NCBI GenBank assembly: GCA_947385775.1
Contig: CANDMI010000043.1
Coordinates: forward strand, 1 to 33,447
Length of the DNA stretch: 33,447 nt
Source of the DNA: an uncultured Eubacterium sp.
Lineage (GTDB): Bacteria > Bacillota > Clostridia > Lachnospirales > Lachnospiraceae
Direction: 5' to 3'
Made by a program: the position numbers and the translations under genes. Below are positions 113 to 23,017 of the stretch, piece by piece (position 1 is the first letter of the stretch; every line of letters starts with the position of its first letter). A model generated the notes under the pieces. It worked only from the letters and a program-made list of their open reading frames with translations. It had not been told where the DNA came from and ran no database searches.

Positions 113-186
113 TTTCAAAATATCCTAAAACCAAACTTCCGGATAACGCTCTATTACTTAGCATTTATACAACAGCGCCCCACCCC

Positions 187-312: not shown

Positions 313-1110
313 ATGGGGATTATAAAAAATCATGGTTTCAGCAGGCTTTGTTTTGTTCGCAAAGTAAGTCTGTTCGCGCTGTTTCTGGCATTTTTCCTCT
401 GTCGGCTGTCAGATGGGACTGTGAACGCCGCGGTGGAATTATTAAATCCGAAACAAACGGTCTATCTGACAAGCAAAAATGTTGGACATTACGACTATAA
501 TCTGGAAGGCGAAATAGGTTTTTCTATGGAGCTTGGGAAATATGAATATATTGTGGAATCCTCCCTTCGTACAGACAACGAGTTTGTGACATCAGATATG
601 GAGTGGGGGCTGCGGGGCGAAATGGATAAGCAGACGGAAAAATGTAGACATGCTCTGTCCGTATATCCGCAATATCCAGGCAGCGCGAACCTATTTTTCG
701 ACGATGAACGAAAAAACACATACGTTTTATCCTTAAACGTACTGCCGTATGAAAATCCGATTCGGACTTTAAAGATCACAAATATCCATAACGGAAAGAA
801 CCTCGCCGGAAAAGTGGAGGAAGCTTATCGGTTTAATTCTGGAAAGGGGGAGTTTGGCGGCCTGATTTATTCCAAAAAAACAGCCGTGCCGAAATTAAAG
901 GTGGAAGTAAAAGAAGGCTGGAAAATAACGGCTGTAGAGGCGCAAAGAATTTGCTCCAAAATGGTTTTGCTCCAAAATCTGAACGCCCAGTCCAAAACAG
1001 TGGAGCTTAAAAAGGCAGGCAAGGGCGACGAACTGCTGGTAGGCATTGATTGCAAAAATGTTGAAAATGGAGGAGAGGCGCGTATCCGATTTGGAACTTC
1101 TAACTGGTAA
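313..1110 (+). CDS. Secreted LPYENP-family protein, type A (copy A1)
   Basis: I do not recognise a named family. The 265-residue product has a basic N-terminus, a hydrophobic segment at about residues 17-30 and a probable signal-peptidase site near residue 40 (VNAA). The mature part is about 225 residues and has no second membrane span, LPxTG or lipobox, so it is probably soluble and exported. It carries the features shared by the array: a VYLTSKN strand after the signal, an RTDNE motif (86-90), YPGSANLFF (121-129), LPYENP (144-149), KNLAGK (162-167), NSGKG (175-179) and SKTVEL (227-232). The PG-x-AN-x-x-F...Y pattern before LPYENP is reminiscent of bacterial Ig-like (Big) domains, which is inference. 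AAGGAGG at 301-307 fixes the ATG at 313. It is the most 5' gene of the array. Confidence 0.85.
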   Translation: MGIIKNHGFSRLCFVRKVSLFALFLAFFLCRLSDGTVNAAVELLNPKQTVYLTSKNVGHYDYNLEGEIGFSMELGKYEYIVESSLRTDNEFVTSDMEWGLRGEMDKQTEKCRHALSVYPQYPGSANLFFDDERKNTYVLSLNVLPYENPIRTLKITNIHNGKNLAGKVEEAYRFNSGKGEFGGLIYSKKTAVPKLKVEVKEGWKITAVEAQRICSKMVLLQNLNAQSKTVELKKAGKGDELLVGIDCKNVENGGEARIRFGTSNW

Positions 1111-1120
1111 GCGCGCTTGG

Positions 1121-1140
1121 AGCGTGTTTAAAAAACGCTC
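1121..1140 (+). repeat. Solo end of the MITE family seen at 6927-7084
   Basis: AGCGTGTTTAAAAAACGCTC begins 10 bases after the A1 stop codon. It matches the terminal repeat of the MITE at 6927 (AGCGTGTTTGAAAAAT) and its next few bases, but no right end follows. It may be a deletion remnant. The AGCGT/ACGCT pairing also makes a short hairpin in the A1-B1 gap. Confidence 0.5.
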
Positions 1141-1208
1141 TGGGGCGAATCTTTTGGACAATACATATTCTCTTGAGAATCTCATAGGAAATTTAGGAGG
1201 AAAGCTTT

Positions 1209-2003
1209 ATGCGGGCATGGAAACAATACGATTGGATAAAAACGAAAAAATTATGCGCTCTTTCGGCTTTGGCGCTGCTTACGTCGGCGTTTTGCCTGGC
1301 ATCTGCCAGCGCGGTATCTGCAAAAGTGAAGATAGAAAAGCCAAAACAGACCATTTATCTAAGCAGCAAGGATGGAAAGGACAGCGCCAGGCAGCCGGAA
1401 TTATTTTTTTACATAGGGCTAAGCGATGGCGACCGGATTGAGGAAACATCGATACGATCCGACAATGAATGGGCTTCCGGCAAGGTCAGCTTTATTAAGC
1501 CTGTAAATTCAGACGGCGTTTTTTTAAACATACGCCCTGTCCATCCAGGCACAGCCAACCTGGCGTTTCAAGACCAGGCTGGCAGAGCCTATACGGTCAC
1601 GGCGGAAATCCTGCCATATGAAAATCCGCTGAAAACCTTAAAGATCACAAATGTAAAAAAGGGGAAAAACCTCGCCGGGAAATTAAACGAGTCGCGTGAA
1701 ACTAAGCCAGAGTCATTTGCCTTTTCCAAAAAGACGGATGCGTCGAAAATAAAGCTTGTGTGTGCGGATGGATGGAAATTAATGGGCGTTAAAATATACG
1801 TAAGAGAGTTTGATGACACATACAATTTTCGGGAACAGGCGATAGACAGAATCAATCTCAATGCCAGGTCAAAGACGATAAATCTGAAAGAGACAAAAAA
1901 AGGGGATTACGTCTGGTTTCGGGACATGCGGTTTGTCAATGAGAAAAACGGGGCGTCCCAGATTATTTTCACCTTTGGCAAAGATCCTTACACATCAAAA
2001 TAG
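1209..2003 (+). CDS. Secreted LPYENP-family protein, type B (copy B1)
   Basis: The 264-residue product is the type B relative of its upstream neighbour. The signal peptide is lysine-rich at the N-terminus, hydrophobic at about residues 17-33, and has a cleavage site after VSA (38). The mature start KVKIEKPKQTIYLSSKD aligns with A-type proteins. Type B is then marked by ELFFYIGLSDGD (64-75), IRSDNE (82-87) and a short loop in place of the type A tyrosine-rich segment. It retains HPGTANLAF, LPYENP (135-140) and KNLAGK. It lacks the NSGKG motif of type A. AGGAGG at 1195-1200 places the ATG at 1209. Its nearest relative in the window is the gene at 7988. Function unknown; export is the only well-supported property. 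Confidence 0.85.
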   Translation: MRAWKQYDWIKTKKLCALSALALLTSAFCLASASAVSAKVKIEKPKQTIYLSSKDGKDSARQPELFFYIGLSDGDRIEETSIRSDNEWASGKVSFIKPVNSDGVFLNIRPVHPGTANLAFQDQAGRAYTVTAEILPYENPLKTLKITNVKKGKNLAGKLNESRETKPESFAFSKKTDASKIKLVCADGWKLMGVKIYVREFDDTYNFREQAIDRINLNARSKTINLKETKKGDYVWFRDMRFVNEKNGASQIIFTFGKDPYTSK

Positions 2004-2046
2004 AAAAAGCAGATTTATGGAAGGGAAAAATTGGAAAGGAAAAATT

Positions 2047-2823
2047 ATGCAGGTATTTCAAACACGCCGCATTGCCGGAACATCCATTCGCTGGCAGTCG
2101 ATTTTGGCTATTATGCTTCTGTTTGGCGTTTCATTTCCTTCTGCCGTAGGAGCGGAAGTAAAAATCGAAAAACCAAAGCAGACGGTTTATCTGGCAAATA
2201 AAAATATCGGATATTATGATTATGACGAAGATGGATTGTTGTATTTTGATATAAAAGTCGGAAAATATGACTATATCGTGGAAGATTCCACACGTACAGA
2301 CAATGAAATAGTGGTGGATGGAGTAGGCTGGTCTAACCGCAGCAGCATGGACAGACAGACGCAAATGTGTTCCCATGATCTATCCATTGCCCCGGAGTAT
2401 CCAGGCATAGCGAATATCTTTTTTGAAGATGAAAAACAAAACACCTATACGGTACAGGTAGAAATCCTGCCATACGAAAACCCGCTGCAAAGCATTCGGA
2501 TTACAAATATTAATAATGGAAAAAGCTTTGCCGGGAATATAGAGGAATGCAATCGGTATCATTCCGGAAAAGGGGAAATGGGAGGGATGTTTTTTCAAAA
2601 GGATACAGCCGCGCCAAAATTAAAAGTGAAAGCGAAGGACGACTGGCAGATCATGACCATTTCCACTACAAAATCCAGGACAAAAACGAAGATCCGCGCG
2701 CAGTCCAAAACGGTAAAATTAGAAAAAGCAAAAAAGGGCGAGGAGATCCAGATCGACATTGTTTTGAAAAATAAGAAAAACGGCGGGGAAGCGATCGTTC
2801 ATTTTGGAAAGTATTGGTGGTGA
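2047..2823 (+). CDS. Secreted LPYENP-family protein, type A (copy A2)
   Basis: This type A copy has 258 residues from the ATG at 2047. I chose that start because AAAGGA (2035-2040) is well spaced from it and a clean signal peptide begins there. Longer in-frame starts at 2017 or 1933 lack a good ribosome site, and the latter would overlap the upstream gene. Signal cleavage is probably after VGA (36). The protein shares YYDYDEDG, YIVED, RTDNE, YPGIANIFFED, LPYENP (141-146) and SGKGEMGG with A1 and the later A copies. It is closer to A1 than to the 4944/6016/7109 group. Forty-three bases separate it from B1. After it the array is interrupted by about 1.6 kb of decayed genes. Confidence 0.83.
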   Translation: MQVFQTRRIAGTSIRWQSILAIMLLFGVSFPSAVGAEVKIEKPKQTVYLANKNIGYYDYDEDGLLYFDIKVGKYDYIVEDSTRTDNEIVVDGVGWSNRSSMDRQTQMCSHDLSIAPEYPGIANIFFEDEKQNTYTVQVEILPYENPLQSIRITNINNGKSFAGNIEECNRYHSGKGEMGGMFFQKDTAAPKLKVKAKDDWQIMTISTTKSRTKTKIRAQSKTVKLEKAKKGEEIQIDIVLKNKKNGGEAIVHFGKYWW

Positions 2824-2845
2824 TATGGTAAGCGGAGGGAAAGCT

Positions 2846-3068
2846 GTGGCAAGGACGGTATCCATAGGAAATCAGGATTTTGGAGAAATGATCAAACAGG
2901 CGTTTTTACTTTATTGGACAAATACCAGTTCGAACGCCCTGATCGGCTCTTTGATAAAAGATGGGGACGATGATGTTCATCTGTATCCGGAATTTTATAT
3001 GCGGGTTTGCATTACGCGGAAAAGAAACACTTATTGACGGCGGATATTTGAATAAATTTGACGCTTAA
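2846..3068 (+). pseudogene. Remnant of an AAA-ATPase-like / PD-(D/E)XK family gene
   Basis: GGAGGG followed by a GTG at 2846 opens a frame starting VARTVSIGNQDFGEMIKQ. This is the characteristic N-terminus of AAA-ATPase-like proteins with a C-terminal nuclease-like domain, common in Clostridia. The following bases keep traces of the YxDKT and DGDDV...RP segments but only with frame changes. At about 3007-3068 a different frame gives GFALRGKETLIDGG, which resembles the very C-terminus of the same family (GFAFRGKEVLI). The roughly 400 residues in between, including the ATPase, are gone. I infer an internally deleted, frameshifted relic. Family assignment rests on recognised motifs only. Confidence 0.55.
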
Positions 3069-3111
3069 TAATCGAATTGTAACAGTTCAGATATAGTGTT
3101 ACATAGTAAAA

Positions 3112-3818
3112 GGAAGGATAATCAGGAAAAATGCCAGTGTTCAAATTGAAAATGAAATAGGAAAAATATTTAGGGGTCATAATATATTTGAATATAAATC
3201 ACCAAAGCACGAACTGGATATAGACACTTTTTATAAAGCAATGGCTTATGCCTGTCTGTATAAATCTTATGGAAAAACGCTAGATGCTGTAAAGGCGGAT
3301 GATATAACGGTATCTCTGGTCAGGAAAGCAAAACCTATGGTTTATTCCGATATTTTAAGGAACATGGTTATTTGGTAAAGGATGTTTACCGTGGAATTTA
3401 TTATGTGGAAGATAGCGTGTTATTTCCTACACAGATTATTGTAACAAAGGAGCTAGATTTACAAGAGCATATTTGGCTTGGGTCTTTGTCAGACCAGCTT
3501 AAGAAACAGGATTTGTGCAATCTGCTGGCAGAGGCTGGAAGGCTGCATGGAAAGGTTGAAAAAGAGTATGCGGAATCTGTTTTGGAGGTTGGACTGGGTG
3601 CGAATAAGCAGCTTGTTAAGGAATTAATAGGAGATGGTAATATGAGTGAAGAATTATTAGAAATACTGAAACCAGTACTTGAACCGGTACGGACAGAAAG
3701 CATAAAGGTGACAGTAGATGCACTGCGTGAGTTTGGGCATAAGAATGGAGAAATAAAGACAGTTATAAAAGAAAAGTATGGGTTAACAGAAAAAGAAGCA
3801 GATTCCTTTTTGCAATAA
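3112..3818 (+). pseudogene. Frameshifted, 5'-truncated PD-(D/E)XK nuclease-like protein
   Basis: Two frames together make one protein. The first, ending at TAA 3376-3378, reads from IENEIGKIFRGHNIFEYKSP through AMAYACLYKSYG to TVSLVRKAKPM. The second, open to 3818, continues LFRYFKEHGYLVKDVYRGIYYVE and then FPTQIIVTKELD. One base missing near 3341-3342 explains the switch: restoring a G after ATGG would give MGLFRYF. EYK in IFEYKSP fits the [DE]xK half of a PD-(D/E)XK nuclease site. The N-terminus typical of this Lachnospiraceae family (as begun at 33420) is absent. The C-terminal ~60 residues are a helical tail rich in Glu and Lys. A stray GTAACAGTTCAG at 3079-3090, just upstream, matches the repeat at 24271. 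Nonfunctional as it stands. Confidence 0.65.
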
Positions 3819-4024
3819 ATAACTGATTCTTGATCCGGGGCATGAGATATCAGAAATTGCTTCTTGATATTTGGGAAATGATCCTTCATATTATGTTGTA
3901 ATCGAAAATAAGAAAGGGGCATGGGATAAAGGATATTTTTACTTTAACAAATTGCGATCAGTTAGAATAACTATGTAAATTATAATTTGAAACATGTCAT
4001 GAAAATCAAGAAAGGATTGATATT

Positions 4025-4285
4025 ATGTTAGCAACAACAGCTCATAACCTTGTTTAACATTTTGATGAAACCTGCGATAACGTTATTAAGACCTGTGAAC
4101 CTATCATTGTTACCCGGAACAACAATAACAATGTCGTTCTTATCTCTCAAGCAGAATATGAGAATCTCATTGAGAACCTTTATATTCGCGAAAGCAAAAC
4201 AAATTATGCCAGGCTTCTTAAATCCATAGAGGAAGCGGACGCAGGTAAACTGACAGTTCTTGATTTAGATTGTTGCCATGCTTAA
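4025..4285 (+). pseudogene. yefM: Decayed YefM/Phd-type antitoxin
   Basis: Read through its single internal stop (TAA at 4055-4057, codon 11), this 87-codon frame gives a recognisable YefM antitoxin. It starts MLATTAHNLV, followed by IIVTRNNNNNVVLISQAEYENLIENLYI, NYARLLKSIEEADAGK and a C-terminal TVLDLD. The known family pattern is MLATT..NFR, PLIVTR..NKNVV and NLMENIY. The stop would leave only ten residues. A start downstream of it could in principle give a shortened protein, but the DNA-binding N-terminus would be lost. The next gene begins inside its last codons, as in intact yefM-yoeB operons. Confidence 0.75.
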
Positions 4286-4343
4286 ATGTTTTACGGATAC
4301 AGCTTGGGAAGATTACAATTGTCGATACCATTATGATAAATAA
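4278..4343 (+). pseudogene. yoeB: Truncated YoeB/Txe-type toxin remnant
   Basis: The ATG at 4278 overlaps the antitoxin stop by eight bases, as is usual for this pair. The first residues, MLKCFTDTAWEDY, match the YoeB/Txe N-terminus (AWEDY is diagnostic). The frame then drifts and stops after 21 codons, without the ribonuclease core residues found near the C-terminus of the family. It is the dead partner of the antitoxin at 4025. Confidence 0.7.
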
Positions 4344-4368
4344 ATCAAATTATTGAATACAAATTACA

Positions 4369-4453
4369 GCAGGTTGTGGAAAAGGGGATTATGAAAACCA
4401 TCAACCATAACAGGTTGATTAGACAGGGGAAAAATAATGGAGCTTATGAATGA
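4369..4453 (+). pseudogene. 5' remnant of a type B LPYENP gene
   Basis: GCAGGTTGTGGAAAAGGGG then ATGAAAACCATCAACCAT (ATG at 4391) resembles the leader and first codons of the B genes at 5823 and 7988 (CTGTGGAAAGGGGAATT, ATGAGAACGGTCGATCAT). The frame ends after about 20 codons, inside the next gene. It marks a lost B copy directly before the A copy at 4944. Confidence 0.5.
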
Positions 4454-4811
4454 ACTGTTTACAAATGTTTCTTATCTCAAAAAATTGCTGGATATAACCG
4501 CTTCAAAATGGGGGCTTTTGGCGGAGGAGCATATTTATGTGGAGGATAAGGAACGCATACAGGATGGATTTATTTTTGATAAGAATACGAACATGCTCGT
4601 TTTCAGACAGCATATTTTTTGTATGTTAAAGCCGAATGGACAGGGGCTTACTTCCATTCACTTAATCCATGATGCGCAGGAAAACACGATCGCCTGCCAG
4701 GCGTACAGGGGCGGGAAGCCTGTAAGTAATTATGTGTTTTTTGCCAGGCAAAATGATTTGGAGGATGAATTTGCCAATTATATGAATCTGGTTGTTGGCA
4801 GGGTTGTTTGA
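4437..4811 (+). CDS. Hypothetical protein, 124 residues
   Basis: I do not recognise this protein. The ATG at 4437 follows AGGGGA (4425-4430), and the frame is intact to TGA 4809-4811. The product has no signal peptide or membrane segment, so it is probably cytoplasmic. It is mixed in composition, with two cysteines (one in the central FCMLKPNG) and an acidic QNDLEDEFANYM segment near the C-terminus. It is not related in sequence to the secreted proteins around it, although its ribosome site lies inside the remnant of a B-type gene. It could be a passenger brought in when the array was interrupted. No function is proposed. Confidence 0.55.
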   Translation: MELMNELFTNVSYLKKLLDITASKWGLLAEEHIYVEDKERIQDGFIFDKNTNMLVFRQHIFCMLKPNGQGLTSIHLIHDAQENTIACQAYRGGKPVSNYVFFARQNDLEDEFANYMNLVVGRVV

Positions 4812-4943
4812 GACGGGCATGTTCAAGAAAGCGTGTGAAGATAACGCTTTCATCTTGGATTTGTTTAGCCGTGCCGAATTGGATTGACCAGCTTAGTTGA
4901 GGTTTGGTTGAGAAGATGCGGTTAAAAAAGGAAAGGAGATAAA

Positions 4944-5759
4944 ATGCAAATTATCAAAAAACATGGTTTTATACCACGATTCCTATTGTTTGCCTTATTG
5001 CTGTTTATGGCCTGCCGTATGTCCACAGTTCCCGCGCAGGCGGAAGTGAACATAAAAAATCCCAACCCGGTCATCTATCTGACGGGGGATTGGCCAAGGA
5101 GTGGTTTCGATTATTTATACGATGCGGATGAGGATGGAATAGTGTATTTTTCATCATATGGAAGAGATACGTGCCCCATAAAATTTACCGAGGGAGATTA
5201 CATTGTTGAATCTTCCGTCCGCGTAGACTGTGAGCAGGTAACAGCGGGCGGAGATTACTATAAAGGGAAATTTGATCCCGTTACCGGTAAATTTGGCTGT
5301 AAGTTTGGTTTTGATATAAGGTTTCCAGGCACAATCCACGTATTATTTGAAGACCAGCGCGGCAGGGAATATGCGATCATTGCTAAAGTCCTGCCATATG
5401 AGAACCCGATCAAAAGCCTGACGGTCACGAATATAAAGAAAGGGAAAAACCTTGCGGGAAAGTTAGATCGGAATTATATGTATGATTCTGGCAAAGGGGA
5501 CTATGGCGGGCTGTTTTTTTCTAAAAAAACAAAAGCTCCGAAATTAAAGGTGAAAACAAAAAAGGGCTGGGAGATCGTGTCAATGAGTATAGGTCCTCAT
5601 GGCTATAAATATCTCAATAAGATCCATGCACGATCCAAAACTGTGGAATTGAAACGTGCAGACAAAGGCGATGAGGTGAGAATCATCTTGAAATTGAGGA
5701 ATATAGAAAACGACGCATATATGTATATCCGGTATGGGATTTATACTTACTCAGCATGA
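4944..5759 (+). CDS. Secreted LPYENP-family protein, type A (copy A3)
   Basis: This 271-residue protein starts at 4944 behind AAAGGAGA. Signal peptide: KKHGFIPR, a hydrophobic stretch (13-24) and a signal-peptidase site after AQA (33). The cysteine at 24 is not in a good lipobox, so type I cleavage is favoured. The mature chain has GDYIVESSVRVDCE (84-97), FPGTIHVLFED (127-137), LPYENP (150-155), KNLAGK, DSGKGDYGG and SKTVELKRADKGDE. Compared with A1 and A2 it carries a longer insert at 50-80 with an extra cysteine pair. Its C-terminal ~110 residues are identical, apart from the last one, to the gene at 7109, while its N-terminal half differs. The following gap holds a deleted B copy. Function unknown. 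Confidence 0.87.
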   Translation: MQIIKKHGFIPRFLLFALLLFMACRMSTVPAQAEVNIKNPNPVIYLTGDWPRSGFDYLYDADEDGIVYFSSYGRDTCPIKFTEGDYIVESSVRVDCEQVTAGGDYYKGKFDPVTGKFGCKFGFDIRFPGTIHVLFEDQRGREYAIIAKVLPYENPIKSLTVTNIKKGKNLAGKLDRNYMYDSGKGDYGGLFFSKKTKAPKLKVKTKKGWEIVSMSIGPHGYKYLNKIHARSKTVELKRADKGDEVRIILKLRNIENDAYMYIRYGIYTYSA

Positions 5760-5822
5760 TGAATAAATATCCGGCAAATATATGGAAAACAGTCAATTAG
5801 GCTGGCTGTGGAAAGGGGAATT

Positions 5823-5977
5823 ATGAGAACGGTCGATCATTTACTGCAACAGCTCTGCCATATGAAAACCCGATCAAAAGCCTTAAGATAGTATCGAATT
5901 TGATGTTTATAAATGAAGAAAACGGGGGATACCAGATCGTGGAAGATTTTGGGAGACGGCCTTTGGATATGAAGTAA
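5823..5977 (+). pseudogene. Type B LPYENP gene with two internal deletions
   Basis: This stretch is a collapsed copy of the B gene at 7988. The ribosome site and ATGAGAACGGTCGATCATTT are kept. The sequence then jumps to the LPYENP region (CTGCCATATGAAAACCCGAT...CTTAAGAT), and again to the 3' end (TCGAATTTGATGTTTATAAATG to the final ATGAAGTAA). About 600 bases are missing in two blocks. The frame is not maintained, so no product of interest is expected. The ends show that the ancestral unit here was an A-B pair, as at 7109-8743. Confidence 0.8.
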
Positions 5978-6015
5978 GATTCGATGGGCTAGGCGTAAAA
6001 AGGAAAGGAGATAAG

Positions 6016-6705
6016 ATGCAAATTATCAAAAAACATGGTTTTATACCACGATTCCTATTGTTTGCCTTATTGCTGTTTATGGCCTGCCATATGTCCATAG
6101 TTCCCGCGCAGGCGGAAGTGAACATAAAAAATCCCAACCCGATCATCTATCTGACGGGGGATTGGCCAAGGAGTGATCGCGATTATTTATACGATGCGGA
6201 TGACGGTGGAATGGTGTATTTTTCATCAGGAAGTAAGCTGTGCTCCATAAAATTTACCGAGGGAGATTACATTGTTGAATCTTCCGTTCGCGTAGACTGT
6301 GAGCAGGTAACGGGAGAAAATTCCTATTACTATGAAGGGGAATTTAATCCCGTTACCGGTAAATTTGGCTGTGATTTTGGTTTTGATATAAGGTTTCCAG
6401 GCACAATCCACGTATTATTTGAAGACCAGCGCGGCAGGGAATATGCGATCATTGCTAAAGTCCTGCCATATGAGAACCCGATCAAAAGCCTGACGGTCAC
6501 GAATATAAAGAAAGGGAAAAACCTTGCGGGAATGTTAGATCGGAACTGTGTGTATGACTCTGGCAAAGGATACTGGGGCGGGCTGTTCTTTTCTAAAAAA
6601 ACAAAAGCGCCGAAATTAAAAGTGAAAACAAAGAAGAATTGGGAGATCGTGTCAATGTGGGTACATCATTATGGCTATAAATATCTCAATAAGATCCATG
6701 CATAA
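6016..6705 (+). CDS. Type A LPYENP-family protein truncated by a stop (copy A4)
   Basis: The open frame gives 229 residues with the same signal peptide as the genes at 4944 and 7109. Residues up to KNLAG are essentially identical to those of 7109. At codon 231, where the sisters have CGA (Arg of ARSKTVEL), this copy has TAA, and the remaining 39 codons continue in frame to 6825. The loss removes the final strands and may destabilise the fold. The protein could still be exported, so I list it as a truncated CDS. Distinctive residues after LPYENP are NCVYDSGKGYWGG and VSMWVHHYG, not found in the other copies. It stands 38 bases after the decayed B copy. Confidence 0.7.
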   Translation: MQIIKKHGFIPRFLLFALLLFMACHMSIVPAQAEVNIKNPNPIIYLTGDWPRSDRDYLYDADDGGMVYFSSGSKLCSIKFTEGDYIVESSVRVDCEQVTGENSYYYEGEFNPVTGKFGCDFGFDIRFPGTIHVLFEDQRGREYAIIAKVLPYENPIKSLTVTNIKKGKNLAGMLDRNCVYDSGKGYWGGLFFSKKTKAPKLKVKTKKNWEIVSMWVHHYGYKYLNKIHA

Positions 6706-6825
6706 TCCAAAACTGTGGAATTGAAACGTGCAGACAAAGGCGATGAGGTGCATATCCACATGAAATTGAAAAACATAAAAAATGGCGCTTATACGTATAT
6801 TGAATATGGGACAGATGTTTGGTAA
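6706..6825 (+). other. Severed 3' end of copy A4
   Basis: After the premature stop the frame stays open, encoding SKTVELKRADKGDE, HIHMKLKNIKNG and YIEYGTDVW before TAA 6823-6825. It aligns with the C-terminus of the other type A copies, so the nonsense change appears recent. No separate start codon or ribosome site serves it. Confidence 0.7.
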
Positions 6826-6837
6826 ATATCCGGCAAA

Positions 6838-6911
6838 TGTTTATAAATGAAGAAAACGGTGGATACCAGATCGTGGAAGATTTTGGGAGACGGCCTTCGG
6901 ATATGAAGTAA
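6838..6911 (+). pseudogene. 3' scrap of a type B LPYENP gene
   Basis: TTTATAAATGAAGAAAACGG through GGCCTTCGGATATGAAGTAA equals the last ~74 bases of the B gene at 7988. It is joined directly to the CCGGCAAAT that normally follows an A gene. The leader, signal peptide and core are all deleted, so this B copy is reduced further than the one at 5823. Confidence 0.75.
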
Positions 6912-6926
6912 GATTCGATGGGCTAG

Positions 6927-7084
6927 AGCGTGTTTGAAAAATGCTTTCTGACAGATGTATTCCACAATTTGTGGGAGATTTGTGCCAAATGAAGGGCGCA
7001 TAGCGGGCTATGTAACCTGAATTTGGCGCAAATATCGCGCAAAGTGGGGGATGCAGATGGCGGGAATGATTTTTCAAACACGCT
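6927..7084 (+). mobile_element. 158-bp MITE with 16-bp terminal inverted repeats and CTAG duplication
   Basis: The ends AGCGTGTTTGAAAAAT (6927-6942) and its exact reverse complement (7069-7084) flank 126 bases without a coding frame. CTAG stands on both sides (6923-6926 and 7085-7088). The paralogous gap before 6016 reads GATGGGCTAGGCGTAAAAA with one CTAG and no element, so the insertion and its target duplication can be read directly. The interior is itself a long imperfect palindrome (ATTTGTGCCAAAT against ATTTGGCGCAAAT, GCGCATAG/CTATGT). It encodes no transposase and would need one in trans. Confidence 0.9.
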
Positions 7085-7108
7085 CTAGGCGTAAAAAAAG
7101 GAGATAAG

Positions 7109-7924
7109 ATGCAAATTATCAAAAAACATGGTTTTATACCACAATTCATATTGTTTGCCTTATTGCTGTTTATGGCCTGCCATATGTCCATAGTTCCCGC
7201 GCAGGCGGAAGTGAACATAAAAAATCCCAACCCGATCATCTATCTGACGGGGGATTGGCCAAGGAGTGATCGCGATTATTTATACGATGCGGATGACGGT
7301 GGAATGGTGTATTTTTCATCAGGAAGTAAGCTGTGCTCCATAAAATTTACCGAGGGAGATTACATTGTTGAATCTTCCGTTCGCGTAGACTGTGAGCAGG
7401 TAACGGGAGAAAATTCCTATTACTATGAAGGGGAATTTAATCCCGTTACCGGTAAATTTGGCTGTGATTTTGGTTTTGATATAAGGTTTCCAGGCACAAT
7501 CCACGTATTATTTGAAGACCAGCGCGGCAGGGAATATGCGATCATTGCTAAAGTCCTGCCATATGAGAACCCGATCAAAAGCCTGACGGTCACGAATATA
7601 AAGAAAGGGAAAAACCTTGCGGGAAAGTTAGATCGGAATTATATGTATGATTCTGGCAAAGGGGACTATGGCGGGCTGTTTTTTTCTAAAAAAACAAAAG
7701 CTCCGAAATTAAAGGTGAAAACAAAAAAGGGCTGGGAGATCGTGTCAATGAGTATAGGTCCTCATGGCTATAAATATCTCAATAAGATCCATGCACGATC
7801 CAAAACTGTGGAATTGAAACGTGCAGACAAAGGCGATGAGGTGAGAATCATCTTGAAATTGAGGAATATAGAAAACGACGCATATATGTATATCCGGTAT
7901 GGGATTTATACTTACTCAACTTGA
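7109..7924 (+). CDS. Secreted LPYENP-family protein, type A, mosaic (copy A5)
   Basis: The 271-residue product starts at 7109 behind AAGGAGA. Up to KNLAG it equals the gene at 6016 (for example GDWPRSDRDYLYDADDGG and GENSYYYEGEFNP), with one early difference (Q for R at 12 and I for L at 14). From there on it equals the gene at 4944 (NYMYDSGKGDYGG, VSMSIGPHGYKY, EVRIILKLRNIENDAY), differing only at the last residue. The switch lies in a stretch of roughly 150 bases, identical in all three genes, that encodes VLFEDQRGREYAIIAKVLPYENP. This is what gene conversion or unequal crossing-over would leave. Export and function are as for the sister copies; the protein is intact. Confidence 0.88.
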   Translation: MQIIKKHGFIPQFILFALLLFMACHMSIVPAQAEVNIKNPNPIIYLTGDWPRSDRDYLYDADDGGMVYFSSGSKLCSIKFTEGDYIVESSVRVDCEQVTGENSYYYEGEFNPVTGKFGCDFGFDIRFPGTIHVLFEDQRGREYAIIAKVLPYENPIKSLTVTNIKKGKNLAGKLDRNYMYDSGKGDYGGLFFSKKTKAPKLKVKTKKGWEIVSMSIGPHGYKYLNKIHARSKTVELKRADKGDEVRIILKLRNIENDAYMYIRYGIYTYST

Positions 7925-7987
7925 TGAATAAATATCCGGCAAATATATGGAAAACAGTCAATTAAGCTGGCTGTGGAAAGGGGAATT

Positions 7988-8743
7988 ATGAGAACGGTCG
8001 ATCATTTCAAAAAAAGACGCTGGCATTTTGCTGTGGGGGGGATTGCGGCGGCGCTTTGCCTTGCGCCTGTAGCCACGGCGCATGCGAAGGTGACAATAGA
8101 AAAACCAAAACAGGCCATCTATCTAAACAGCAAGGATGCGGACGAAAGCGTCAAACAGGCGGAATTATATTATTATATCGGGTTAAGCGACGGCGACGCG
8201 ATCCGGGAAGACACCATCCGGTCAGACAATGAGCTGGTTTCCGGGGAAGTGCGTTGTTACAAGCCTGTAAATATGGAAGGGGTGATTTTAAATGTAAGCC
8301 CGGCGAGCCCCGGCACGGCGAACATATCCTTTGAGGACGGCGCTGGCAGGGAATATACGGTTACAGCGGAAGCTTTGCCATATGAAAACCCGATCCAAAG
8401 CCTTAAGATCACAAACGTCAAAAACGGAAAAAACCTGGCTGGGAAATTGGACGGGGCGCGGGCCTATACGCAGGAAATGTTTACGTTTTCCAAAAAAACG
8501 GACAAGCCGAAGCTAAAGGTCGTGTGCAAGGAAGGCTGGCGGCTGGGATATGTACGCATTGACACCCCTTCGGACTGGTATAGCGTCAGAATCTTTGCCC
8601 CTACCGGTTCAAAGACCTTGAAGCTGGAAAAAGCAGCAAAAGGGGATTATGTATGGCTATCGAATTTGATGTTTATAAATGAAGAAAACGGGGGATACCA
8701 GATGGTGGAAGATTTTGGGAGACGGCCTTCGGATATGAAGTAA
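7988..8743 (+). CDS. Secreted LPYENP-family protein, type B (copy B2)
   Basis: I place the start at the ATG 7988, which follows GGAAAGGGG at 7974-7982. A GTG at 7973 lies within that ribosome site. The 251-residue product has a basic N-terminus (FKKRRWHF), a hydrophobic core and a cleavage site after AHA (33). The mature chain starts KVTIEKPKQAIYLNSKD and has ELYYYIGLSDGD (59-70), IRSDNE (77-82), SPGTANISFEDGAGREYTV (107-125) and LPYENP (130-135). The PGTANISFED...YTVTAE run resembles the end of a Big-type Ig domain. It is the only intact B copy besides 1209 and forms an A-B pair with the gene 63 bases upstream. Codon use here is more G+C-rich than in the A copies. Function unknown. Confidence 0.85.
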   Translation: MRTVDHFKKRRWHFAVGGIAAALCLAPVATAHAKVTIEKPKQAIYLNSKDADESVKQAELYYYIGLSDGDAIREDTIRSDNELVSGEVRCYKPVNMEGVILNVSPASPGTANISFEDGAGREYTVTAEALPYENPIQSLKITNVKNGKNLAGKLDGARAYTQEMFTFSKKTDKPKLKVVCKEGWRLGYVRIDTPSDWYSVRIFAPTGSKTLKLEKAAKGDYVWLSNLMFINEENGGYQMVEDFGRRPSDMK

Positions 8744-8841: not shown

Positions 8842-9171
8842 TTACGCTAACTGCATCGATTGGCTTTCTAACTCTTTAATTATATCAAGGGATAATTCCG
8901 TAGCTTCTGCTATTTCCTCTAAAGTCATTTTACCTAACTTTATTAAATGCACCGCTGTCCTTTTTGCCTTATTTTGTGCCGCTTCGATTGCCGCTTCATT
9001 TCTCATGTCTTCCATAATTTTACACATGGTGGCAACTCCTTTCTCATCTTGCTTAAAATATCGTGCTTTTTTAGCAAGCGCTTCAAAGTTCATATCATCG
9101 GGGTTAGTGCATGAAAAATCGTGCATTAGCTTGCCAATTTCATCATTGCCCCTATATCTGCTCTGTTGTGC
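8842..9171 (-). pseudogene. C-terminal fragment of an Rpn/PD-(D/E)XK family nuclease-transposase
   Basis: On the minus strand the frame runs from a stop near 9171 through SRYRGNDEIGKLMHDFSC, NPDDMNFEALAKKARYFK, GVATMCKIMEDMRNEAA and a C-terminal helix with KMTLEEIAEATELSLDIIKELE. These are the familiar closing segments of Rpn-family (recombination-promoting nuclease / PD-(D/E)XK transposase) proteins. The N-terminal two thirds, including the catalytic core, are absent. Internal ATGs (for example at 9126) could yield at most 94 residues. I judge it a broken relic at the right border of the island. Confidence 0.7.
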
Positions 9172-9365
9172 TCAAAATATTACCTTCTTTCGCCACTTTT
9201 ATTATACATCAGACAATTTCTTTTAAAAACTGAATTTTTCGTAAAATTTTCCTGCCTCATTTCATAATAAAGTCAATATATTTTAATTAAAATCATCGCG
9301 TCCCGGGTTACAGTGAAGCCAAGGCTGAACTGAAACAAAAATGATAAAAATTTAACAAAATTATA

Positions 9366-9445: not shown

Positions 9446-10882
9446 ATGGGTAATAGTAATGATAACTGTGCAATGCGGCGAATTACACAGTTAGTCGACG
9501 AAAACAGCTTTATGGAAATTGGTTCGCTTGTTACAGCCAGAAGCACTGATTTTAACCTGTCAAAGGCAGATACCCCGTCGGACGGCGTAATTACTGGGCA
9601 TGGGCTGATTGATGGGAACCTGGTGTTTGTATACAGCCAGGATGTGTCCGTGTTGGGCGGTACGGTAGGCGAGATGCATGCGAAAAAGATCGCGTCGGTC
9701 TATGATATGGCGATGAAGATGGGCGCGCCTGTCGTCGGCATTTTGGACTGCGCCGGCGTAAGGCTCCAGGAATCGGTAGACGCGCTGGAAGGCTTTGGGC
9801 TGATCTATGCAAAGCAGGCCGCGGCTTCCGGCGTTATCCCGCAGATCAGCGCCGTTTTTGGAAGCTGCGGAGGCGGGCTTGCTGTCGTATCCGCGTTAAG
9901 CGATTTTACCTACGCGCAGGCGGATAAAGCGAAAATCTTTTTAAATTCCCCGAACGCCATCGAAGGAAACCGGATGGATAAGTGCGACACTTCTTCGGTG
10001 GAATTTCAGGACGCGCAGGCAGGCACGATTGACGGAGCGGGCAGTGAGGAAGAGATCCTTTCTGATATCCGCACCCTTGTATGCATGCTGCCTTCCAATA
10101 ATGCCCAGGGCGGCTGCGACGACGGCTGCACGGACGATTTAAACCGCGCGTGTGAAAGCCTGGATACGATGAAGGGCGACCCAAGGTATGTTCTAAGCGA
10201 GATTTCCGACGGACACTTATTTATAGAAGCAAAAGCAGGCTACGCAAAAGAAATGGTGACGGGCTTTATCAAATTAAACGGCATTACCGTTGGCGCGGTG
10301 GCAAACTGCACCGAAGAATATGACGCACAGGGCAAAAAGACCGAAAGCTACGATGCGGCGTTATCCGCAAGGGGATGCCATAAAGCAGCGGAATTTGTTT
10401 CATTTTGCGACGCCTTTGACATTCCTGTAATCTCCTTTACGAATGTATCCGGCTTTAAAGCGTCCATGTGCTCAGAGCGCAACCTTGCAAAAGCGCTCGG
10501 ACGGCTGACCTGCGCCTTTGCAAACGCGACGGTGCCGAAAGTAAACCTGATCATGGACAAGGCATATGGAAGCGCTTATGCGGTTATGAACTGTAAATCC
10601 CTTGGCGCAGATTTAGTATACGCATGGCCGGACGCAAAAACCGGGATGATGGATTCGGCGCTTGCGGCGAAGATCATGTACGCGGACGAACCGGCTTCTG
10701 TAATAGAGAAAAAAGCGGCGGAATATGACGCGTTGCAGGGAAATGTGCGCTCTGCCGCCGCCCGAGGCTATATCGACCGCATCATAGACTATCCGGATAC
10801 AAGGAAATATTTGATCGCGGCAATGGAAATGCTGTATACAAAGCGTGTAGAACAGCCAAATAAAAAGCATGGAACAAAATAG
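9446..10882 (+). CDS. Acyl-CoA carboxyltransferase subunit (methylmalonyl-CoA decarboxylase alpha-like)
   Basis: The 478-residue protein belongs to the biotin-dependent acyl-CoA carboxyltransferase family (crotonase-like fold), which moves CO2 between a carboxylated acyl-CoA and carrier-bound biotin. Diagnostic segments are SQDVSVLGGTVGEMHAKKI (64-82), DCAGVRLQE (101-109), the oxyanion-type GSCGGG (139-144) and a second-domain FTNVSGF. It is somewhat short for the family (usually about 510). GGAGGA precedes the ATG at 9446. As first gene of an operon with carrier, OadG, OadB and OadA it should be the acyl-CoA-specific transferase. Methylmalonyl-CoA/propionyl-CoA is my preferred substrate, but glutaconyl-CoA or malonyl-CoA type cannot be excluded from sequence alone. 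Confidence 0.87.
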   Translation: MGNSNDNCAMRRITQLVDENSFMEIGSLVTARSTDFNLSKADTPSDGVITGHGLIDGNLVFVYSQDVSVLGGTVGEMHAKKIASVYDMAMKMGAPVVGILDCAGVRLQESVDALEGFGLIYAKQAAASGVIPQISAVFGSCGGGLAVVSALSDFTYAQADKAKIFLNSPNAIEGNRMDKCDTSSVEFQDAQAGTIDGAGSEEEILSDIRTLVCMLPSNNAQGGCDDGCTDDLNRACESLDTMKGDPRYVLSEISDGHLFIEAKAGYAKEMVTGFIKLNGITVGAVANCTEEYDAQGKKTESYDAALSARGCHKAAEFVSFCDAFDIPVISFTNVSGFKASMCSERNLAKALGRLTCAFANATVPKVNLIMDKAYGSAYAVMNCKSLGADLVYAWPDAKTGMMDSALAAKIMYADEPASVIEKKAAEYDALQGNVRSAAARGYIDRIIDYPDTRKYLIAAMEMLYTKRVEQPNKKHGTK

Positions 10883-21597: not shown

Positions 21598-22374
21598 ATG
21601 GACAATTATGAAAAATTTAAAAAGGACGTATTGTCATTAACAAAGATTGACTTAAACAGCTACAAAGAAAAACAAATGAGGCGCAGGATTGACACGCTGA
21701 TCCGTAAGACCAACGCGAAAACCTATGATGAATACGTGGCGCTGTTAAAAAAGGATAAGGACATATTTGAAGCGTTTATCAACTTTTTAACGATCAATGT
21801 GTCTGAATTTTTCCGTAATCCTGACCAATGGCAGATATTGGATAAAAAGATCATTCCGGAGCTGATCGGGAAATTCGGCAAAAACTTAAAAATCTGGAGC
21901 GCGGCCTGCTCTACCGGAGACGAGCCGTATTCCCTTGTTATGGCATTGTCCAAGCATATCCCGTTAAACCAGATCCGTATTCTTGCTACGGACATTGACA
22001 AGCAGGTGTTGGAAAAAGCGAGGGTAGGGCTTTACAACGCCAAAAGCATTGCCAACGTACCGGAGGAATTTAAAAAGAAGTATTTTACGAAAATCGGCGC
22101 GTCTTACCAGATTTCTGACGACATAAAAAAACGTGTGGAATTTAAGGAACATAATTTACTGCGGGATACTTATCCGACAGGCTGTGATATGATCGTCTGC
22201 CGCAATGTGGTTATTTATTTTACGGATGATGCAAAGCAGGAGATTTATATTAAGTTTAATAAGGCGCTGAAGGATAAGGGGATTTTGTTTATTGGGAGTA
22301 CGGAGCAGATTATGAATTATAAGGAGTTGAATTATGAACGTTCGTCGTCGTTTTTCTTTATAAAGGGCGTGTAG
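21598..22374 (+). CDS. cheR: CheR-type chemotaxis protein methyltransferase
   Basis: CheR adds methyl groups from S-adenosylmethionine to glutamates of chemoreceptors. I use the ATG 21598 (ten bases after AGGAG); 21592 is four bases from it and less likely. The 258-residue product has the helical N-terminal domain (YEKFKKDVLSLTKIDLNSYK, KQMRRRIDTLI), the SEFFRNPDQW segment and the SAM-binding WSAACSTGDEPYSLVMAL (near 98-115). It continues with ILATDIDKQVLEKA, IVCRNVVIYF and FIGSTEQI. No chemoreceptor, CheA or flagellar gene is in the window, so it is an isolated copy. Many Lachnospiraceae carry such a gene outside the main chemotaxis operon. Confidence 0.9.
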   Translation: MDNYEKFKKDVLSLTKIDLNSYKEKQMRRRIDTLIRKTNAKTYDEYVALLKKDKDIFEAFINFLTINVSEFFRNPDQWQILDKKIIPELIGKFGKNLKIWSAACSTGDEPYSLVMALSKHIPLNQIRILATDIDKQVLEKARVGLYNAKSIANVPEEFKKKYFTKIGASYQISDDIKKRVEFKEHNLLRDTYPTGCDMIVCRNVVIYFTDDAKQEIYIKFNKALKDKGILFIGSTEQIMNYKELNYERSSSFFFIKGV

Positions 22375-22431: not shown

Positions 22432-22670
22432 CGGACGCTGGAAACAGGCAGCAGGTCCGTCTGGATGTTCCGGCTTTAGGATGTAAGAAGTTCTAGGCAT
22501 TCTGCGCAGGGGTTTCGTATCGGACGGACCGGGATTGCACCGCCATCCATGGCGGCAATCCCTTTTTCGGGCATCCTTGCCCGAAAATCCTGTATGGAAA
22601 GCAGAATGCAAGAACTTCTAACATCTCTACACAGTCACATCCAGACGGGCCTGCTGCCTGTTTCCGGCTG
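22432..22670. repeat. Palindromic repeat family P1, copy 2 (inverted relative to copy 3)
   Basis: About 239 bases fold on themselves: GGAAACAGGCAGCAGG near the left end pairs perfectly with CCTGCTGCCTGTTTCC near the right end. The pairing continues through GTCTGGATG/CATCCAGAC and AGAAGTTCT/AGAACTTCT. Two inner hairpins are GGATTGC...GCAATCC around GGCGG and TTTTCGGGC/GCCCGAAAA. The sequence is the reverse complement of the element at 22777. No open frame explains it. Confidence 0.88.
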
Positions 22671-22776: not shown

Positions 22777-23017
22777 CCAGCGGAAGCAAGCGGGGGACTG
22801 TTCGGATGGTGACATGCGCAGGGATGTTAGAAGCGCTTGCATTCTGTTTTCAACAGGATTTTCGGGCAGGGACGCCCGAAAAAGGGGACTGCGCCATGGA
22901 TGGCGGTCAGTCCCCGGTCCGTCCGGTATCGGTAAATTATAAACAGAATGCTTAGAGCTTCTTACATCCCGAAGCCGGAACATCCGGACAGGCCCCCGTT
23001 TGCTTCCAGCGTCCGGG
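22777..23017. repeat. Palindromic repeat family P1, copy 3
   Basis: GGAAGCAAGCGGGGG pairs with CCCCCGTTTGCTTCC (one G-T), and the stem continues through GGATGTTAGAAGCGC...TGCATTCTG against CAGAATGCTTAGAGCTTCTTACATCC. Inner hairpins are TTTTCGGGC/GCCCGAAAA (22859-22882) and GGGGACTG/CAGTCCCC (22884-22915). Many stem bases differ from copy 2 yet remain paired. The right half equals the start of the window (1-112). The 106 bases between copies 2 and 3 hold nothing I recognise. Confidence 0.88.

What the first reader, a model, noticed from the sequence alone, without database searches (positions are those of the whole stretch)
313..8743. Tandem array of an unrecognised secreted protein family (LPYENP family)
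Seven genes plus at least three remnants encode exported ~220-residue proteins sharing a signal peptide, PG-x-AN-x-x-F, LPYENP, KNLAGK and SKT motifs. They have no anchor, no lipobox and no recognisable partner. The motif pattern hints at a single bacterial Ig-like domain, which is inference. A multigene family of secreted proteins with rapid turnover suggests interaction with a changing target such as host, phage or competitor molecules.
Basis: partly seen in the sequence, partly recalled or inferred. Interest (0 to 1): 0.8.

Follow-up and report, generated by a model that had tools for sequence, protein, structure and literature searches.

The report
Tandem secreted two-domain protein array
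A gut-type bacterium carries a cluster of seven related genes for small, apparently exported proteins of a family without a name in the databases searched; relatives occur in other gut bacteria, and the copies seem to multiply and swap halves, as genes for contact with a changing environment often do.

Summary
Six intact genes and one with a premature stop (313-8743) encode apparently exported proteins of one family; two further remnants lie among them. No convincing match was found in Pfam, NCBIfam, PHROGs, PADLOC or PDB sequences. The reading changes in four ways. (1) The mature chain is two halves, not one Ig-like domain: an N half that is a far relative of Big_2 (visible only through relatives) and a C half ("YxNP...GW") without known relatives. 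(2) The family is not private: 30 frames covering most of its profile were read in other Lachnospiraceae, a Clostridia MAG and a Coriobacteriales MAG, up to six per genome, tandem in two. (3) The seven are one well-supported clade that grew by duplication, lastly of a two-gene A-B unit, in an island of at least 9.3 kb that parts a D-Ala-D-Ala carboxypeptidase gene from the next gene; none of 12 other same-genus genomes gave a full match. (4) g6 matches g5 in its 5' part and g4 in its 3' part, switching in a 157-nt block identical in all three, if the assembly is right. Best reading: exported ligand-binding proteins diversified by duplication and half-swapping. Ligand, export and folds are not shown; structure prediction gave no result.

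The parts
313..1110 (+). g1, A-type family gene, intact, 265 aa with signal-peptide-like start
1209..2003 (+). g2, B-type family gene, intact, 264 aa
   Evidence: pairs with g7, 99/88
2047..2823 (+). g3, A-type family gene, intact, 258 aa (ATG 2047 behind GGAAAGGAAAAATT)
   Evidence: pairs with g1, 96/91
4944..5759 (+). g4, A'-type family gene, intact, 271 aa
5808..5977 (+). remnant of a g7-type (B) gene with internal deletion
6016..6705 (+). g5, A'-type gene with premature TAA at 6703; coding similarity goes on to 6822
6837..6911 (+). 3' remnant of a g7-type (B) gene
6926..7085 (.). 160-bp MITE-like element with inverted ends; four copies with exact ends in the genome (this one included), each between CTA and TAG; the paralogous junction near 5985-6000 is an empty site
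7109..7924 (+). g6, A'-type gene, intact, 271 aa; mosaic of g5 (5') and g4 (3')
7469..7625 (+). 157-nt block in g6 (nt 361-517) identical in g4, g5 and g6, spanning the LPYENP junction between the two halves; the switch lies in it
7988..8743 (+). g7, B-type family gene, intact, 251 aa
9334..9346 (.). right border of the lineage-specific island: DNA similarity to same-genus genomes starts here

Best explanation
The array encodes small exported proteins with two halves: an N-terminal Big_2-like half and a C-terminal half of a new kind, joined at a conserved YENP junction. Most likely they are soluble or loosely held extracellular binding proteins that fasten to a ligand in the gut (host mucus or glycoprotein, or the surface or polymers of neighbouring cells), each half carrying its own variable binding face. 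The array grew by tandem duplication, lastly of a two-gene A-B unit whose B copies decayed twice, and recombination inside the conserved junction made a new pairing of halves. Shown: one family, seven copies, two halves, tandem duplication, one clade, an island absent from the same site in the relatives that could be read. Shown on the assembly as given: the mosaic. Inferred: export, the Ig-like fold of the N half, binding, the ligand, and selection for variety.
For: Family and copies. Relatives: 30 frames over most of the profile, 37 rows with the window; window versus relatives by profile 99.5%, E 2.8e-23. N half versus 23 distinct Big_2 domains of the same genome: 91.6%, E 8e-7 from 17 relatives; reversed alignment 0.2%, C half 0.9%. 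Ten column shuffles gave at most 0.4% against 84.3% for all 22 members in a run with 14 Big_2 domains. One clade 100/100 with sub-clades g1+g3, g2+g7, g4-g6, which with the g7-type remnants behind g4 and g5 gives an A-B unit. Mosaic: 30 sites follow g5 (last at nt 360), then 50 follow g4 (first at nt 518); 2 runs, reached in 0 of 100,000 shuffles; longest stretch without g4-g5 difference 158 nt, 0 of 20,000 uniform draws. Old pairs look constrained (dN/dS 0.17-0.34 in 16 of 18 pairs, dS high or saturated; 2 not computable). In 5 of 15 loci whose neighbours were read, exported surface-type proteins lie beside the relative: BspA-type LRR (2), CAP+Big_2 (2), Big_2 (1). Precedents: two Big domains of T-Mac bind host receptors (PMC11833123, passages); SSL7 uses its two domains for two ligands (PMC4964448, passages).
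Against: No ligand, binding site or structure. The window copies alone show no Big_2 similarity (0.9%), and a profile of the 23 Big_2 domains finds single members weakly: 5 of 37 at E below 0.01, the seven window copies at 0.66-3.2. No excess of amino-acid change among recent copies: N half pN/pS 1.41, p 0.64; C half 0.51, p 0.016 uncorrected. The mosaic lies in repeats of several hundred identical bases in a 152-contig draft and could be a misjoin. Ten of 15 loci have no such surface-protein neighbour identified.
Confidence: 0.45

Rival explanations
1. Host-directed modulators: the proteins bind host immune or epithelial proteins and the copies differ in target, as the staphylococcal superantigen-like proteins do.
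For: Small exported two-part proteins in a tandem array; Big domains that bind host receptors exist; two-domain two-ligand precedent.
Against: No host target tested; relatives include many scattered single copies; no excess of amino-acid change in recent copies.
Confidence: 0.17
2. Own-envelope or matrix proteins: the mostly basic proteins coat the cell wall or hold its acidic polymers, and copy number sets dose.
For: 30 of 30 relatives have a computed mature pI of 9.47 or more (with a rough cleavage rule); neighbours in some genomes are surface proteins.
Against: The window copies have left that charge range (pI 6.7-9.5) and old copies differ far more than a dose effect needs.
Confidence: 0.18
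3. Competition between bacteria: secreted inhibitors or decoys against toxins, phages or enzymes of neighbours.
For: Rapid turnover and a toxin-antitoxin remnant in the same island.
Against: No toxin or immunity pair recognised; PADLOC 0 of 22 members, PHROGs one weak match in 1 of 18; no match in phage or plasmid records for the two proteins tried.
Confidence: 0.1
4. A relic: copies multiply by recombination without benefit and decay.
For: One nonsense copy, two deleted copies and other broken genes in the same island; recent copies near neutrality in the N half.
Against: Six of seven frames are intact with plausible ribosome sites; old pairs have dN/dS 0.17-0.34 where computable; the family is spread over many genomes.
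Confidence: 0.1

Closest known systems
Bacterial Ig-like domain group 2 (Big_2, PF02368)
   Same: N half of relatives aligns with Big_2 domains of the window's own genome over the SSN..V and KKAGTa.V stretches
   Different: No window copy and none of 10 relatives reaches Pfam's score; a long insert lies between the two stretches; a C half without convincing Pfam match follows
Staphylococcal csa1/lpl tandem lipoproteins ('gene accordion', PMC7360770; abstract and passages seen)
   Same: Tandem array of exported paralogues alike over their length; recombination between copies, said in that paper to have been proposed to make chimeric surface proteins
   Different: Those are lipoproteins; here four of seven copies fit no lipobox pattern; no shared Pfam family; copy-number change over time is not shown here
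Staphylococcal superantigen-like (SSL) proteins (PMC4964448 passages; array named in PMC7360770 passages)
   Same: Secreted two-domain paralogues from a tandem array, with different ligands
   Different: SSLs are OB-fold plus beta-grasp; no such family matched here; function here unknown
Fibrillar adhesins (PMC8286594, passages seen)
   Same: Ig-like (stalk-type) domain in an exported protein
   Different: Here the protein is short, with no repeated stalk and no recognised anchor or adhesive domain

Membership tests
Big_2 (PF02368) | Pfam gathering score reached by the protein | tested here: not met
   none of 7 window proteins and none of 10 relatives; best 14.1 bits against 22.8
Big_2 (PF02368) | profile-profile similarity of the N half to genuine Big_2 domains | tested here: inconclusive
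   91.6% for 17 relatives, 87.8% for all 22, 0.9% for five window copies alone; controls under 1%
Big_2 (PF02368) | Ig-like beta-sandwich fold | not testable with these tools
csa1/lpl tandem lipoproteins | lipobox | tested here: inconclusive
   g1, g2, g3, g7 fit none of three recalled patterns; g4-g6 fit only the loosest
csa1/lpl tandem lipoproteins | tandem array of paralogues that recombine | tested here: met
   subject to the assembly
SSL proteins | match to the OB-fold / beta-grasp toxin families | tested here: not met
   no such Pfam family listed at E up to 1 and 5; the folds themselves could not be tested
Fibrillar adhesin | stalk repeats, adhesive domain and anchor | tested here: not met
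   251-271 aa, no tandem repeat in the genes, no LPXTG-like motif, no Pfam domain; non-motif anchoring not testable
Phage or plasmid cargo | relatives in phage, plasmid or viral records | tested here: not met
   Searches (two proteins by tblastn; pattern scans): none found

The most novel reading that the evidence does not exclude
A gene accordion for half-swapping in a gut commensal: a two-part exported family whose conserved YENP junction serves as the place of exchange, so that N and C halves are re-paired within a tandem array and the cell changes the binding face it shows, with a C-terminal domain of a new fold.
Probability: 0.18. Interest if true: 0.75.

Novelty: new variant of a known kind. 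Interest (0 to 1): 0.5.

Why it matters
The family-model libraries searched miss this family although it recurs, up to seven copies per genome, in gut lineages including Blautia. If the copies are exported binders that recombine by halves, this would be a commensal counterpart of the staphylococcal arrays, open to test with culturable gut bacteria. The alignments made here (22 and 37 sequences) would let the family be named in genomes and metagenomes.

Tried and rejected
Family look-ups: Pfam, NCBIfam, PHROGs and PADLOC gave no convincing family. Weak matches that disagree with each other were taken as chance: NCBIfam in 3, 2 and 1 of 18 members at best E 0.0008-0.0027, PHROGs in 1 of 18 at 0.0087, Pfam SpaA_4 in 1 of 19 C halves at 0.0004. 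PDB profile searches: best E 0.31 for the whole profile, none up to E 10 for the C half.

Mobile origin by phage or plasmid: no relative found in phages, plasmids or IMG/VR; the IMG/VR scans use short patterns and reach mainly close relatives.

Positive selection: tested by halves, not shown. Protease-inhibitor (chagasin-like, I42) idea: resemblance of NP, GxGG and GW recalled only; no such Pfam match; dropped.

More copies elsewhere in the genome: none found; the eight matches are all on this contig. Contigs C24 and C43: ends compared, sharing a 17-nt stretch of an interspersed repeat; not joined.

A first Big_2 comparison kept 14 of 21 domains because I read seven on the wrong strand; one search repeats it with all 24 (23 distinct).

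Literature: searches showed no paper that by title or abstract start treats this family; the library holds open-licence PMC papers only.
Full report
What is there. The window is one whole contig (C43, 33,447 bases) of a draft genome of 152 contigs, 96.0% complete and 3.75% contaminated. Seven family genes run on the + strand from 313 to 8743. Six are intact; g5 has a TAA at 6703 and its frame goes on resembling the family to 6822. Two more remnants are g7-like: 5808-5977, with an internal deletion, and 6837-6911, a 3' end only. All seven have a charged start, a hydrophobic core, an AxA-like site and a purine-rich stretch before the start (read by eye). None has an LPXTG-like motif or a further strongly hydrophobic segment. 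g4-g6 have a cysteine in FMAC that fits only the loosest of three recalled lipobox patterns.

Known families. The seven proteins matched no Pfam family above chance (best E 0.05, far below cut-offs) and no NCBIfam family. Ten relatives gave only matches below Pfam's cut-offs, among them Big_3 at 20.1 bits (cut-off 21.2), Big_2 at 14.1 (22.8) and Big-like at 12.1 (27). PHROGs matched 1 of 18 members at E 0.0087; NCBIfam matched 3, 2 and 1 of 18 to three unrelated families at best E 0.0008-0.0027; PADLOC matched 0 of 22; of 19 C halves one matched SpaA_4 at E 0.0004 and others other families more weakly. The Protein Data Bank had no match below E 0.31 for the whole profile and none up to E 10 for the C half.

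Relatives. With the profile of the seven, 1 of 13 genomes of the genus matched, the window's own, and 7 of 397 of the family including it. With profiles widened by relatives: 14 of 397 in the family at E 1e-3, 13 of 392 in the order at 1e-4, 4 of 391 in the class at 1e-4, each count including the window's genome. In these larger searches at most six candidates per genome were scored, so they are lower bounds; some weak partial matches may be other Big_2 proteins. In the genus, 3 of 12 other genomes gave weak matches (E 9e-5 to 2e-3) within the first 136 of 251 positions, in open frames of 324-850 aa, which I take for Big_2 cross-talk. With all candidates scored in 17 chosen genomes (16 that had matched before, and the window's own), matches at E 1e-6 were 7 (window), 6 (Coriobacteriales MAG), 6 (Lachnospiraceae MAG), 4 (B. 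schinkii), 4 (another genome of its genus code), 3, 3 and 1 in each of the other ten. From the loci I read 35 family frames outside the window; 30 were kept for the tree and 5 dropped by a filter on profile coverage and length (three that miss the first part of the profile, one 100-aa fragment, one 512-aa protein). MAG binning may misplace a contig, so the spread to Actinomycetota rests on one MAG with six copies.

Two halves. The relatives show what the window copies hide. Their first half keeps two stretches, SSN..V and KKAGTa.V.yk.g.k.Y...V, that look like Big_2. I took the 24 Big_2 domains that PF02368 finds in the window's own genome, 23 of them distinct, and compared profiles: N half of 17 relatives 91.6% (E 8e-7); N half of all 22 members 87.8%; N half of five window copies alone 0.9%; C halves 0.1-0.9%. 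The reversed N half gave 0.2%. An earlier run with 14 Big_2 domains (seven had been read on the wrong strand and dropped) gave 84.3%, and at most 0.4% in ten column shuffles. Against this, a profile of the Big_2 domains finds single members only weakly: 5 of 37 at E below 0.01, best 1.4e-6, the window copies at 0.66-3.2. Window and relatives belong together: 99.5% (E 2.8e-23) over the full length, 98.9% for the C half, 71% for the N half (both sides cut from one joint alignment). So the N half is most likely a far Big_2 relative that has drifted beyond direct recognition in the window clade. The C half begins at YxNP: N and P are invariant and Y, G and W nearly so in the 22 aligned members; among all 30 relatives 24 have [YW]xNP and six have changed forms such as YxCP (two of the 24 were trimmed rows, read). 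The C half has no known relative. In three other proteins (512, 309 and 289 aa) the later part of the profile, from about position 52-67 on, lies at the C-terminal end of another chain, and Pfam knows nothing in them. Structure prediction would have tested the folds but gave no result.

How the array arose. In a tree of 37 proteins the seven are one clade (100/100) on a long branch, with g1+g3 (96/91), g2+g7 (99/88) and g4+g5+g6 (100/100) inside; the three tandem copies of the Clostridia MAG form their own clade (100/99), so tandem growth happened more than once (the program flags an odd letter make-up for g6 and one relative, and six long branches, none of them a window row). Gene order with the remnants reads A(g1) B(g2) A(g3) ... 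A'(g4) b A'(g5) b A'(g6) B(g7). g4 and g6 are alike from before the gene through the start of the following B copy (4932-5842 against 7097-8007, 95%), and the 3' parts of the two b remnants are 97-98% like g7. The unit copied last is therefore A'-B, and two B copies decayed. A 160-bp element with inverted ends sits before g6; its four exact-ended copies in the genome all lie between CTA and TAG, and the junction before g5 is the matching empty site, which suggests a TA target as in IS630-type elements (recalled).

g6 is a mosaic. Of 82 sites that vary among g4, g5 and g6 over 804 ungapped columns, 30 pair g6 with g5 and 50 pair it with g4; all 30 come first (last at nt 360), all 50 after (first at nt 518); the two others, in the signal peptide, set g6 apart. 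Two runs were reached in 0 of 100,000 shuffles. The 157 nt between are identical in all three, although g4 and g5 differ at 80 sites; a gap that long arose in 0 of 20,000 uniform draws. The block covers the end of the N half, LPYENP and the start of the C half, the best conserved part of the array (17 of 52 columns invariant among g1, g2, g3, g6, g7, against 9 of 87 and 14 of 99 on its sides). So the exchange re-paired an N half with a C half. The caution is that identical stretches of several hundred bases are where draft assemblies misjoin.

Selection. Of 18 pairs of old copies, 16 have dN/dS 0.17-0.34, with dS from 1.2 to 3.6, and two have dS beyond computing. In the recent trio the N half shows pN/pS 1.41 (p 0.64); the C half of g4-g5 and g5-g6 shows 0.51 (p 0.016, uncorrected, g5 taken with the tail behind its stop): no sign of positive selection, perhaps some constraint on the C half.

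Where it sits. DNA similarity to the same-genus genomes begins at 9334-9346, just before the carboxyltransferase-like gene at 9446. All 12 other genomes of the genus have a match to that gene, one of them partial. Upstream sequence was fetched for ten: in six the next gene is a D-alanyl-D-alanine carboxypeptidase gene on the same strand (G001, G002, G003, G005, G008, G011; Peptidase_S11 and PBP5_C in all six, G003 and G008 cut by the contig end), in G004 an AAA-ATPase-like gene (PF09820), in G012 an ABC-transporter gene, and in G009 and G010 the contig ends too soon. In the window's genome the carboxypeptidase gene stands at the very end of contig C24 (195-1460), followed by scpB, scpA and further frames of the size, strand and order seen in the relatives. 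So the island of at least 9.3 kb (GC 0.41 against 0.47 for the rest) lies between two genes that are neighbours in six of the eight relatives where this could be read, at a site where two others hold other genes. That C24 and C43 are neighbours is inferred from this order. Both contig ends carry the same interspersed 17-nt stretch, so the array may be longer than assembled. The island also holds a broken YefM-type antitoxin frame and a short piece like the AAA-ATPase-like protein (22 residues, 50%).

What it does. Nothing here shows function. Relatives are uniformly basic (computed pI at least 9.47 in 30 of 30, with a rough cleavage rule), the window copies are not (6.68 to 9.54), so the clade has changed its surface. 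Of 15 loci whose neighbours I read, five have other exported proteins beside the relative: BspA-type LRR (two), CAP plus Big_2 (two), Big_2 (one); the other ten have plain or unidentified neighbours, and the neighbours in the 12 loci were not read. Small exported proteins in recombining arrays have precedents: csa1 lipoproteins, whose array expands and contracts and where recombination has been proposed to make chimeric surface proteins (PMC7360770, abstract and passages), and SSL proteins, where SSL7 binds IgA with one domain and C5 with the other (PMC4964448, passages). Two Big domains of T-Mac bind host chemokine receptors (PMC11833123, passages). From this I infer ligand binding outside the cell, with variety made by duplication and re-pairing of halves; confidence 0.45, limited mostly by the unknown ligand.

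Novelty. The family and its C half are not named in the libraries searched, and five literature searches showed no paper on it (open-licence library, titles and abstract starts). The way of working, if right, is known from other arrays. I rate it a new variant of a known kind, interest 0.5.

Noticed in passing
window 22472-22633 (-) and 22815-22976 (+): Two TwoAYGGAY RNA motifs (RF01731, 104.9 and 97.7 bits) on opposite strands between the genes ending at 22374 and 23038.
   Followed up: no
window 4025-4284 (+): YefM/Phd-type antitoxin frame (PF02604, E 8e-12) with a TAA near its start; no intact toxin frame was noticed beside it.
   Followed up: partly
window 2912-2977 (+): Short piece (YWTNTSSN...) like the AAA-ATPase_like protein that stands intact at the same site in genome G004 (L162 510-1955): the site seems to hold different genes in different species.
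   Followed up: partly
window 6926-7085; L062, L063, L065: 160-bp MITE-like element with exact inverted ends, four such copies in the genome, all at CTAG, with an empty paralogous site in the array.
   Followed up: partly
window 139-155; L170 45-61; L096 422-438 and 534-550: Interspersed stretch CCGGATAACGCTCTATT at the facing ends of contigs C43 and C24 and twice, inverted, on another contig of the genome.
   Followed up: partly
window 8842-9126 (-): Fragment weakly like the end of Rpn-type recombination-promoting nuclease/transposase (TIGR01784, 22.2 bits, cut-off 52.1).
   Followed up: no
L141, L142, L133, L134, L138 (genome G1098, Coriobacteriales MAG): Besides the first-found copy (L035), five scattered family frames in a MAG named as actinobacterial: descent, transfer or binning not decided.
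   Followed up: partly
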